64,000 nt of DNA, from the NCBI GenBank assembly GCA_903835685.1, contig CAILNX010000058.1:1-64000 (forward strand), written 5' to 3'. Source of the stretch: an uncultured delta proteobacterium. Its GTDB lineage: Bacteria; Desulfobacterota; Desulfovibrionia; Desulfovibrionales; Desulfovibrionaceae. Below the pieces are notes generated by a model that ran no database searches, had not been told where the DNA came from, and saw only the letters and a list, made by a program, of their open reading frames with translations. Below are positions 26,783-29,717 of the stretch, piece after piece. The translations under genes and the position numbers were made by a program. The first letter of the stretch is position 1. Each line of letters begins with the position of its first letter.

Positions 26783-27678
26783 CCGTCACCCTGAAACTGC
26801 TCGCCACCATGGTCATCTGGGGCGGGACCTTCATCGCCGGGCGGCTGCTGGCCCAGGACATGGGCTCGTTCTCGGCCGCCTTTCTGCGTTTCCTGGCCGC
26901 CTCGGTGTTCATGGCCCTTTTGACCTGCCGGGCCGAGGGCCGCTTTCCCCCCTTGCGCCGGAACATGGTCCTGCCCGCCCTGATCCTGGGGCTCACGGGC
27001 ATCTTTTTGTACAACGCCCTGTTCTTCACGGGCCTGCGCCAGGTGGCGGCCGGGCGGGCCTCGCTGATCATCGCGGGCACGCCCGGGATCATCGCCGTGC
27101 TCTCGTGGATATTTCTGCGCGAGGCCTTTCCCCTGCCCAAGGCCCTGGGCGTGGTCTTGGCCCTGGCCGGGGCCGTGGTGGTCATCACCAACGGGGAACC
27201 CTGGACCGTGCTCAGCGGCGGGGCCGGGATGGGCGAGCTGGCCATCCTGGGCTGCTCCTTGAGCTGGGCGGCCTATACCCTGGCCGGGCGCAAGGCCCTT
27301 CAATACATGTCCCCCCTGGCCTCGGTGCTCTGGGCCTGCATCGTGGGCGACGCCCTGCTCCTGCCCATGGCCCTTGCCCACGGCCTGGCGGCCGACCTGG
27401 CCCGCTCCACCCTCCTGGACTGGGGCAACATTCTTTTTCTGGGCGTGCTGGGCACGGGCCTGGGATTTAGCTGGTACTCCCAGGGCATCCAGGCCATCGG
27501 CACGAGCCGGGCCGCAGTGTACATCAACCTGGTGCCCATCTGCGCCATGCTCATGGGCTTTTTCTTCCTGGGCGAACCTTTGAGCCTGTCCCTGGGGGCC
27601 GGGGCCGTCCTGGTCTTCACCGGGGTCTGGCTGACCAACCGGCCCGTGGCCCAGGATTCCTCCCGCGCCCCGGCCTGA
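26779..27678 (+). CDS. EamA/DMT-family transporter
   Basis: A 299-residue permease with ten predicted transmembrane helices in two EamA repeats (about 4-135 and 150-285). Typical family features are IWGGTFIAGRLLA at the start and LVPICAMLMGFFFLGEPLS near the end of repeat two. DMT proteins export or import amino acids and other small metabolites; the substrate is not predictable. Translation begins at GTG 26779 within GTGA, overlapping the upstream stop. A sigma-28-like promoter lies just downstream for the next gene. Confidence 0.88.
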   Translation: MTVTLKLLATMVIWGGTFIAGRLLAQDMGSFSAAFLRFLAASVFMALLTCRAEGRFPPLRRNMVLPALILGLTGIFLYNALFFTGLRQVAAGRASLIIAGTPGIIAVLSWIFLREAFPLPKALGVVLALAGAVVVITNGEPWTVLSGGAGMGELAILGCSLSWAAYTLAGRKALQYMSPLASVLWACIVGDALLLPMALAHGLAADLARSTLLDWGNILFLGVLGTGLGFSWYSQGIQAIGTSRAAVYINLVPICAMLMGFFFLGEPLSLSLGAGAVLVFTGVWLTNRPVAQDSSRAPA

Positions 27679-27694
27679 TTTTTTCACCCGCCCC

Positions 27695-27721
27695 TAAAGA
27701 CTTTTGGAAAAAGGTCGATAC
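27695..27721 (+). promoter_or_regulatory. Sigma-28 (FliA)-type promoter
   Basis: TAAAGACT (27695-27702), exactly 11 bp, then GTCGATAC (27714-27721). The sigma-28 consensus is TAAAGTTT-N11-GCCGATAA, so 12 of 16 positions agree, including the TAAAG and CGATA cores. It lies 39 bp before the ATG of the small protein. Confidence 0.6.
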
Positions 27722-27759
27722 GTAATTCAGAAAACCCCAACAACGGTGAGGGTGGAAGT

Positions 27760-27963
27760 ATGGAAACCCAAATCAGCAGCGCACCGATTGCGCATGGGAT
27801 CCAGGCAGGACAGAAGATGGCCAGCGGGGGACTGATCGACAAAACCCTCCAGCATCTCAAGGATTACGCCCAGAGAGTGGAGCAGGCCCCGGCGCGGGAG
27901 TCTTACCAGCAGAGCGCCCTTGCGGCCAAGGGGATCGGAGCCAAGGTGAACAAGGCCATATGA
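27760..27963 (+). CDS. Small protein, possible flagellar-regulon member
   Basis: A 67-residue soluble protein I cannot assign. It is rich in Ala, Gln and Gly, with an amphipathic helix about 25-45 (IDKTLQHLKDYAQRVEQ) and a Gly-Lys tail. No signal peptide, Cys or membrane segment is present. GGTGGAAGT precedes the ATG. The matched sigma-28 promoter just upstream suggests co-expression with late flagellar genes, where small unannotated proteins are common. It is not FlgM-like: no anti-sigma C-terminal helix pattern is visible. Function unknown; real expression is likely given the promoter and ribosome site. Confidence 0.65.
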   Translation: METQISSAPIAHGIQAGQKMASGGLIDKTLQHLKDYAQRVEQAPARESYQQSALAAKGIGAKVNKAI

Positions 27964-28358
27964 TGGCTGGCGCTTCACCGCATCCTTTCCAGCAAGGGGA
28001 GCACAGGGTCAAGACCCTGGTCGGCCTTGCCTGGGACGCCATCCCGGGCCAGGCGGAAAGCAGGCCTTCCGGCTGACCTGGCCACAGGGTCTGGCCGCGC
28101 GTTCTTTTTTCGTCCGCTTACCCCCCTCCCTTGCCTTTGCCTCCATCCGACGTATTCCCAAAGAACCCAGGGCCATGACGCCGTCCTTTGCCCATCGGGA
28201 CAGGGGGCACATTGCACCTTACCCTCGGGCAGGCTTTGTGCTAGGTTCGCGCCCTTCAAAGCGGCCCGGCAGGCCATCTGAAGGCCTGGGCCAGGCCCCT
28301 GGACCTTGCGAGACAGGGGCGAGACAGGGGCGCGACAGGGGCAAGGAGTTCAAGTTCT
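27964..28358. other. 395-bp intergenic region before aldehyde dehydrogenase
   Basis: No convincing gene or RNA is visible. The last part holds three 11-bp direct repeats at 28308-28340 and the ribosome site AAGGAG at about 28343-28348. The rest looks like non-coding spacer. Confidence 0.5.
28308..28340 (+). repeat. Three 11-bp direct repeats
   Basis: GCGAGACAGGG occurs at 28308-28318 and 28319-28329, then as GCGCGACAGGG at 28330-28340. One-turn spacing fits a protein binding one DNA face, or simple slippage. It lies 18 bp before the aldehyde dehydrogenase ATG. Confidence 0.75.
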
Positions 28359-29717
28359 ATGCAGAGCGTCAATCCGGCCACGGGCCGGGTCATGGCCGAA
28401 TATCCGCCGCACAGCCCTCGGGCGGCCCAGGACGCGGTGACGGCCGCGTCCTTGTCCCAGAAGACCTGGGCGGCCCTGTCCGTGGCCGACCGGGCCAGGG
28501 GGCTTGTGGCCGTGGCCGAGGTCCTGGACCGGCGGCTGGCCGAATACGCGGCCCTCATCACCTCGGAAATGGGCAAGCCCGGGTCCGAGGCCCGGGCCGA
28601 AGTGGCCAAATGCGCGGCCGTGTGCCGGTTCTACGCCGAGCACGGGCCGACCATGCTGGCCGACCGGGCCGTGGCCACCGAGGCGGCCAGAAGTCTGGTG
28701 ATGCACGAGCCCCTGGGCCTGGTCCTGGCCATCATGCCCTGGAATTTTCCCTTCTGGCAGGTCATGCGCTTGGCCGCGCCCGCGCTCATGGCCGGGAACG
28801 GCTTTGTGCTCAAGCACGCCGAGAACGTGCCCGGCAGCGCCCTGGCTCTGGAGCAGTTGTTCCGGGAGGCCGGTCTGCCCTCTGATTTGGTACGCACCCT
28901 GCTCATCTCCGAGCCCGAAGTGGAGCCGATCCTGGCCCGGGCCGAGGTGCGGGCCGTGGCCCTGACCGGCAGCGCCCGGGCCGGACGGGCCGTGGCCGCC
29001 CTGGCCGGGGGCCTGCTGAAAAAATCCATCCTGGAGTTGGGCGGGTGCGATCCGCTCATCGTGCTGGAGGATGCGGACCTGACCGCCTGCTGCGCGGCCG
29101 CGCTTGAGTCCCGGATGAAGAACGCCGGGCAGACCTGCACTGCGGCCAAACGCCTGCTGCTGGCCGAGCCCCTGGCCCAAGAGTTCGAGGAGAGACTTCT
29201 GGCCCTGGCCCGGGGCCTGCGCCTGGGCGATCCCACGGACCCGGCCACGGACATGGGGCCTCTGGCCCGGGCGGACATCCGCGAGGCCCTGCACGACCAG
29301 GTGCAGCGCAGCCTGGCGGCCGGGGCGCGGCTGGTCCTGGGCGGCGTGCTGCCCGACGGGCCGGGATATTTCTATCCGCCCACCATCCTGGCCGGGGTCC
29401 GGCCGGGCATGGCCGTGTTCGAGGAGGAGACCTTCGGACCGCTGGCGGCCATCACCACCTTCAAGGATGAAGAAGAGGCCGTGGCCCTGGCCAACGCCTC
29501 GGCCTACGGCCTGGGGGCCAGCATCTGGACCGCCGACCCGGCCCGGGGCGAGGCCCTGGCCCGGCGCATGGAGGCGGGCACGGTCATGGTCAACGCCCAG
29601 ACCCGCTCGGATTTCCGCCTGCCCTTCGGTGGGGTCAAGGATTCCGGCTGGGGCCGCGAACTCTCCCACTACGGCATACGGGAGTTGTCGGCCGTGAAGA
29701 CGTTGTGGGTGGCCTGA
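28359..29717 (+). CDS. NAD(P)-dependent aldehyde dehydrogenase (succinate-semialdehyde type)
   Basis: A 452-residue enzyme at the short end of the family, as in the GabD/Sad2 group. PWNFPFWQ binds the cofactor, LELGGCDP holds the general-base Glu, and NAGQTCTAAKR holds the catalytic Cys. FEEETFGP and the C-terminal FGGVKDSGWGRE signature complete the fold. It should oxidise succinate semialdehyde or a related aldehyde in the cytoplasm. AAGGAG lies 10 bases before the ATG. It is single-gene, converging with the XRE regulator gene 14 bp beyond. Confidence 0.9.
   Translation: MQSVNPATGRVMAEYPPHSPRAAQDAVTAASLSQKTWAALSVADRARGLVAVAEVLDRRLAEYAALITSEMGKPGSEARAEVAKCAAVCRFYAEHGPTMLADRAVATEAARSLVMHEPLGLVLAIMPWNFPFWQVMRLAAPALMAGNGFVLKHAENVPGSALALEQLFREAGLPSDLVRTLLISEPEVEPILARAEVRAVALTGSARAGRAVAALAGGLLKKSILELGGCDPLIVLEDADLTACCAAALESRMKNAGQTCTAAKRLLLAEPLAQEFEERLLALARGLRLGDPTDPATDMGPLARADIREALHDQVQRSLAAGARLVLGGVLPDGPGYFYPPTILAGVRPGMAVFEEETFGPLAAITTFKDEEEAVALANASAYGLGASIWTADPARGEALARRMEAGTVMVNAQTRSDFRLPFGGVKDSGWGRELSHYGIRELSAVKTLWVA

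What the first reader, a model, noticed from the sequence alone, without database searches (positions are those of the whole stretch)
27695..27963. 67-residue unknown protein behind a sigma-28 promoter
The promoter matches 12 of 16 consensus positions with exact N11 spacing, in an otherwise GC-rich region. This ties an unannotated small protein to the flagellar late regulon.
Basis: partly seen in the sequence, partly recalled or inferred. Interest (0 to 1): 0.6.

Follow-up and report, generated by a model that had tools for sequence, protein, structure and literature searches.

The report
Small flagellar-regulon protein family
A tiny gene in a sulfate-reducing bacterium turns out to belong to a large, uncatalogued family of small proteins, most of them sitting right behind the genetic switch that turns on late flagellum genes, so it is probably an unrecognised accessory part of bacterial swimming.

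Summary
Window 27695-27721 is TAAAGACT-N11-GTCGATAC (12 of 16 against the sigma-28 consensus), the only such site in 64 kb, 38 nt before a 67-codon ORF (27760-27963). The protein is real. The same genome has three diverged paralogs at scattered places, each behind its own sigma-28-like site (13-15 of 16). Profiles built from them find the family in 133 of 227 genomes of the taxonomic family, and more thinly elsewhere in the phylum. Of 71 family genes read, 54 have a site of at least 12 of 16 within 150 nt upstream, against 1.6-2% by chance. Close orthologs are under purifying selection. No Pfam, NCBIfam or PHROG family covers it. So the tie to the late flagellar regulon is supported. Mechanism is inferred: a small, cysteine-free, two-helix, S/T/G/A-rich protein made with the filament, probably exported by or bound to the flagellum. 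Closest known kind: the uncharacterised YjfB small motility proteins, similar in size, ends and promoter; homology not proven. Against it: the site is missing in some members (Nitratidesulfovibrio-type; most of another family of the order), FliA dependence is untested, and the link with flagellin is confounded by phylogeny.

The parts
27695..27721 (+). sigma-28-type promoter: TAAAGACT-N11-GTCGATAC (-35 27695-27702, -10 27714-27721)
   Evidence: read directly; only such site in the window; counterpart sites before the three paralogs
27748..27755 (+). probable weak ribosome-binding stretch GAGGGTGG, 4 nt before the ATG
   Evidence: inspection only
27760..27963 (+). 67-aa protein gene, founding member of the family described here (stop codon included)
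27808..27858 (+). codes for conserved segment 1, GQKMASGGLIDKTLQHL (family core KQtFGAqvVtKTLDyMN)
   Evidence: alignments
27898..27939 (+). codes for conserved segment 2, ESYQQSALAAKGIG (family core DYdFQKsVLxAxxGxG)
   Evidence: alignments

Best explanation
The locus is a one-gene transcription unit of the late (sigma-28) flagellar regulon that makes a 67-aa member of an uncatalogued small-protein family centred on the Desulfovibrionaceae. Shown here: the gene is real, has three paralogs in the same genome, the family is widespread, conserved as protein and mostly preceded by a sigma-28-type promoter. Inferred: FliA transcribes it together with filament genes once the hook is complete. Inferred and less sure (about 0.35): the protein, small, without cysteine, with no long hydrophobic stretch, poor in R/E/W/H, with a loose N-terminus, two short helices joined by an S/G/N-rich linker and a conserved C-terminal GxGxxxN/D tail, is exported by the flagellar type III apparatus or binds flagellum parts and acts as an accessory of the filament or hook; several diverged paralogs would be variants of the same accessory. 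In function it would be a counterpart of the uncharacterised small sigma-28/sigma-D proteins of the YjfB kind.
For: Paralogs: 3 other copies in the genome, with sites 15/16 N12 (C2), 14/16 N12 (C15), 13/16 N11 (C26). Family: 133 of 227 genomes of the taxonomic family, 29 of 44 genera; 108 of 199 in the order. Promoter: 54 of 71 loci at 12/16 or better, 48 of 71 also 30-60 nt before the ATG, null 4 of 244 windows, 2.0% Markov, 1 of 71 opposite strand; half-site test; five of the low scorers have 13-16/16 sites further up because the ORF starts earlier with an extra module. Selection: across 120 ortholog pairs differences by codon position 1810/1605/3857; 19 of the 20 closest pairs have dN/dS between about 0.03 and 0.22. 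Same promoter type in own flagellin genes: L160 14/16, L161 12/16. Composition: 0 cysteines in 4959 residues of 70 members against 1.3% in six window proteins; correlation with flagellin composition 0.83 against 0.58 with the window proteins. No family genome lacks flagellin: 133 of 133.
Against: Export is inferred from composition alone; 19 of 31 flagellins examined do contain cysteine, so absence of cysteine is not a clean marker. The flagellin link is phylogenetically confounded: several genera with flagellin-less genomes also lack the family in their flagellate members, and at genus level the association is not significant (hand calculation, p about 0.11). 62 of 195 flagellin-positive genomes show no family member. 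No sigma-28 site in four Nitratidesulfovibrio-type loci and in most loci of one other family of the order. Fold predictions are poor (pLDDT 56 and 59). The fliA gene itself was not looked for.
Confidence: 0.65

Rival explanations
1. It is a divergent member of the YjfB_motility family (PF14070), the small sigma-D/sigma-28 motility proteins, i.e. homologous and not merely analogous.
For: Similar size, MD start, one helix with K[KT]xLD, and a Gly-x-Gly-x-N-[LI]-[DN]-like end; YjfB hits in the same phylum (6 of 297 genomes, 2 over the cut-off) also carry sigma-28-like sites (L113 15/16, L114 and L115 13/16 with N12). Profile comparison scores exceed all 150 column-shuffled controls in both modes and the reversed control.
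Against: hhalign probability only 4.7% local and 7.9% global; the best Pfam match among 42 members is E 0.38 for one member; PF14070 finds nothing in the own genome or 58 relatives; the YjfB proteins read here lack the DYDFQKSVL segment. The YjfB alignment had 6 sequences only.
Confidence: 0.35
2. It is a cytoplasmic regulator of the flagellar system (an anti-sigma-28 or export-chaperone-like adaptor) that feeds back on late gene expression.
For: Small, sigma-28-type promoter, partly helical, likely folding on a partner; FlgM-type regulators are themselves in the sigma-28 regulon (recalled).
Against: No FlgM, FliT or FlgN model among the matches up to E 10 in Pfam or NCBIfam scans; up to four diverged paralogs per genome and tandem modules suit a structural accessory better than a single regulator.
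Confidence: 0.2
3. The promoter drives a small regulatory RNA and the ORF is incidental.
For: Sigma-28-dependent small RNAs exist in enteric bacteria (PMC10578931, seen as search listing and abstract start).
Against: dN/dS well below 1 in close orthologs and conserved amino-acid cores across diverged DNA; homologs were found by protein profile.
Confidence: 0.04
4. Chance promoter-like match and spurious ORF.
For: A 12 of 16 site occurs in 2 of 8 shuffled windows.
Against: Recurrence before paralogs and homologs and purifying selection.
Confidence: 0.01

Closest known systems
YjfB_motility, Pfam PF14070 (B. subtilis YjfB)
   Same: About 60-70 aa, MD start, one K-x-LD helix, G-x-G..N-[LI]-D-like C-terminus, sigma-28-like promoter in part of its Desulfobacterota members; described in PMC11607428 as an uncharacterised small protein in a flagellar gene module (passage read).
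   Different: The family here has a second conserved segment DYDFQKSVL, core FGAQVVTKTLDYMN, and 1-4 scattered genes; the window copy is not in a flagellar cluster; Pfam match not significant.
sigma-28 (FliA) class 3 flagellar regulon
   Same: Promoter sequence and spacing, position relative to start codon.
   Different: The window copy sits between an EamA transporter and an aldehyde dehydrogenase gene; FliA dependence not tested.
FlgM anti-sigma-28 factor
   Same: Small, late flagellar (recalled).
   Different: No profile match.

Membership tests
sigma-28-dependent late flagellar genes | TAAAGTTT-N11/12-GCCGATAA-type promoter a short distance before the start | tested here: met
   Window 12/16 N11, 38 nt to ATG; 54 of 71 family loci at 12/16 or better.
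sigma-28-dependent late flagellar genes | Transcription lost in a fliA mutant | not testable with these tools
   Needs RNA data; the rows listed by the searches show no fliA-mutant transcriptome of a Desulfovibrio.
YjfB_motility (PF14070) | Pfam score above the curated cut-off of 27 bits | tested here: not met
   One of 42 members matches at E 0.38; 0 of 59 genomes incl. own.
YjfB_motility (PF14070) | Homology by profile-profile comparison | tested here: inconclusive
   Probability 4.7-7.9%, yet above 150 of 150 column shuffles.
FlgM anti-sigma-28 | Match to the FlgM profile | tested here: not met
   Not among matches up to E 10 in Pfam and NCBIfam for 42 members.
Flagellar type III export substrates | Secretion through the flagellum shown for the protein | not testable with these tools
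   Only composition and a loose N-terminus in low-confidence models point that way.
Family described here | Core [KQ]xxxGaxxVxKTLDxxN ... FQxxVLxAxGxG | tested here: met
   The two nearest paralogs score 24-30 bits, E 1.6e-4 and 2.9e-6, in the single-sequence search; the window protein scores 76.8 bits against profile A2, which contains it; identity to other members 14-45%. Its cores are among the more diverged.

The most novel reading that the evidence does not exclude
An unrecognised, often multi-copy class of small flagellum accessory proteins common across the Desulfovibrionales, exported through the flagellum and coating or modifying filament or hook, forming with YjfB one ancient group of sigma-28 small proteins whose function nobody has assigned.
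Probability: 0.3. Interest if true: 0.75.

Novelty: new variant of a known kind. Interest (0 to 1): 0.58.

Why it matters
It adds a large family, absent from Pfam, NCBIfam and PHROGs as searched, to the probable late flagellar regulon of sulfate reducers. Because the promoter suggests when it is made, and because cultured relatives carry it (Nitratidesulfovibrio and Desulfovibrio strains among the records), the open question of what the small sigma-28/sigma-D proteins of the YjfB kind do becomes directly testable by deletion and localisation.

Tried and rejected
Single-sequence searches of the window protein found only its own paralogs: 1 of 59 genomes; 84 candidate stretches of genome contigs held no relative. 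Pfam, NCBIfam, PHROGs gave chance-level matches. Plasmid and phage searches found nothing credible. PDB by profile: best E 0.43. AlphaFold models were too poor for a fold search, so none was run. Sigma-54 sites were looked for in 17 stretches upstream of family genes, mostly ones without a sigma-28 site: none reached 9 of 10. The link to flagellin presence looked very strong per genome but I discount it because of phylogeny. Literature: six searches on Desulfovibrio/FliA, YjfB and on core peptides of the family listed no description of these proteins; on cysteine in flagellar proteins gave nothing useful.

Full report
What was claimed and what is there. The window holds TAAAGACT, 11 nt, GTCGATAC at 27695-27721 and a 67-codon ORF at 27760-27963. 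Against the sigma-28 consensus TAAAGTTT-N11-GCCGATAA (recalled) that is 12 of 16. It is the only site that good with N11 on either strand of the window; in eight Markov shuffles of the window the counts were 0,0,0,0,1,2,0,0. Upstream lies an EamA transporter gene, downstream an aldehyde dehydrogenase gene, both on the same strand, so the gene has no flagellar gene as a direct neighbour. No sigma-70-like promoter was found in 27640-28360.

A family appears. The single protein finds itself and two more places in its own genome and none in 58 relatives. These two copies, on contigs C2 and C15, share 45 and 44% identity with it in the alignment, and each has its own sigma-28-like site: TAAAGTTT-N12-GCCGAAAA (15/16) and TAAAGATT-N12-TCCGATAA (14/16). 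A profile of the three (A1) searched in 199 genomes of the taxonomic family gave weak hits; reading 17 of these by eye, I kept 11 that looked like the same protein and dropped the others (L015, L017, L021, L022, L024, L028). I had already seen the upstream sites when I made that choice, so those 11 are not blind; the later searches used protein profiles alone. The 14-row profile A2 then found the family in 133 of 227 genomes at E up to 0.001, 29 of 44 genera, and a fourth own copy on C26, with TCAAGTTC-N11-GCCGAAAA (13/16) upstream. With the 42-row profile A3: 108 of 199 genomes of the order and 8 of 345 in the phylum, four of these outside the order, in two other families. One genus, g52, shows none although most of its genomes have flagellin. 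Named carriers include Desulfovibrio, Nitratidesulfovibrio, Solidesulfovibrio and Humidesulfovibrio records.

The protein. Of 70 distinct sequences most are 61-78 aa, four are 84-113 aa with modules in tandem. The common plan is a variable S/T/A/G-rich start, core KQtFGAqvVtKTLDyMN, an S/G/N-rich linker, DYdFQKsVLxA and a GxGxxxN/D tail. None of the 70 has cysteine (0 of 4959 residues, against 1.3% in six proteins of the window); the composition correlates with that of 31 flagellins at 0.83 and with the six window proteins at 0.58; but 19 of those 31 flagellins do have cysteine. There is no long hydrophobic stretch (maximum 19-residue mean 1.36). In one genus, 120 ortholog pairs differ at codon positions 1/2/3 by 1810/1605/3857 in total, and among the 20 closest pairs dN/dS is about 0.03-0.22 in 19 and 0.47 in one. 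AlphaFold gives two helices at low confidence, mean pLDDT 56 for the window protein and 59 for a relative.

The promoter goes with the protein. I read 71 loci (of the roughly 150 places that one search lists; L058 with an in-frame stop was left out): 54 of 71 have a site of at least 12 of 16 with N11 or N12 within 150 nt of the assigned start, 48 of them 30-60 nt before it; random windows reach that in 4 of 244, Markov sequences in 2.0%, and the opposite strand of the same stretches in 1 of 71. Many of the 71 are close relatives, so they are not 71 independent events. In a test that picks only the -35 half, the -10 half stands at N11 in 30 of 50 and N12 in 8 of 50 loci, and at the 17 other spacings tested in 0-3 of 50 (the 50 are the loci of the 71 with a -35 half of at least 6 of 8). 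Of 17 low scorers, five (L082, L090, L091, L094, L095) have 13-16/16 sites further up, where the ORF starts earlier with an additional module. Outside the Desulfovibrionaceae the link fades: of 20 further loci (18 from three other families of the order, 2 from the same family) 6 have 13/16 or better within 500 nt, one of these (L205) 441 nt from the start and two from the same family, against 3.7% of 600 windows; most loci of one family (f5) have none. Sigma-54 sites do not explain the exceptions.

Positive control. Of four flagellin-type genes in the own genome, two have a sigma-28-like site of at least 12 of 16 (L160 14/16, L161 12/16) and two do not; over 34 flagellin-type loci 9 reach 12 of 16 within 250 nt. 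So the consensus seems to be in use here, and the small genes carry it more regularly than flagellin genes do.

Co-occurrence. All 133 family genomes are among the 195 of 227 with flagellin; none of the 32 without flagellin has the family (Fisher 1.4e-14). I give this little weight: of the 20 flagellin-less genomes that one search lists (12 more are not listed) all fall in genera g7, g13, g26, g35, g52 and g54, and the flagellate members of g7, g35, g52 and g54 lack the family as well; by genus (29 of 44 and 42 of 44) a hand calculation gives p about 0.11. Also 62 flagellin-positive genomes show no family member.

Relation to known kinds. Pfam, NCBIfam and PHROGs gave no model for it. The nearest is YjfB_motility, PF14070. 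It rings in B. subtilis among the controls and in 6 of 297 genomes of the phylum, where three of the six carry good sigma-28-like sites (L113 15/16; L114, L115 13/16 with N12; the others 11 or less) and four end in G[VI]GxN[LA]D[VL][RK]A tails that resemble tails in this family (for example GVGGNLNIKA in L054). Profile comparison gives 4.7% (local) and 7.9% (global) probability, which is not significant; yet none of 150 column-shuffled controls reaches the observed score in either mode. With six YjfB sequences this stays open. PMC11607428 calls YjfB an uncharacterised small protein in a flagellar gene module (passage read).

How it most likely works. Shown: a real small protein gene in a conserved family, mostly behind a sigma-28-type promoter. 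Inferred from established flagellar biology (recalled): FliA becomes free when the hook is finished, so the protein is made with the filament. Inferred with less certainty: it is an accessory of filament or hook, possibly exported. A cytoplasmic regulator is the main rival on function; membership in YjfB is the main rival on descent and is compatible with either.

Noticed in passing
L004:4241-4477 (- strand), downstream of the C2 paralog: A 79-aa ORF (MNPIGKPATATVYMENSREHF...) follows the C2 copy closely, so it may share its sigma-28 promoter; no relative in the loci held and no Pfam or NCBIfam match.
   Followed up: partly
L130 and L132 (sites at G000:C14:28674-28700 and G000:C43:148801-148827): Two further strict sigma-28-like sites in the own genome precede a 425-aa open-ended ORF that starts like a secreted protein and a 416-aa open-ended ORF rich in A/S/T.
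   Followed up: partly
L081, L096, L100, L101, L128, L194, L195, L211: Family proteins with the core module in tandem, mostly with the DYDFQ segment only once: the module seems to be duplicated repeatedly.
   Followed up: no
genus g52 of the taxonomic family: Its flagellate genomes show no member of the small-protein family: a natural comparison group for motility differences.
   Followed up: no
L122, L123, L124, L126 (Nitratidesulfovibrio-type): Two-module family genes without any recognisable sigma-28 or sigma-54 site upstream.
   Followed up: partly
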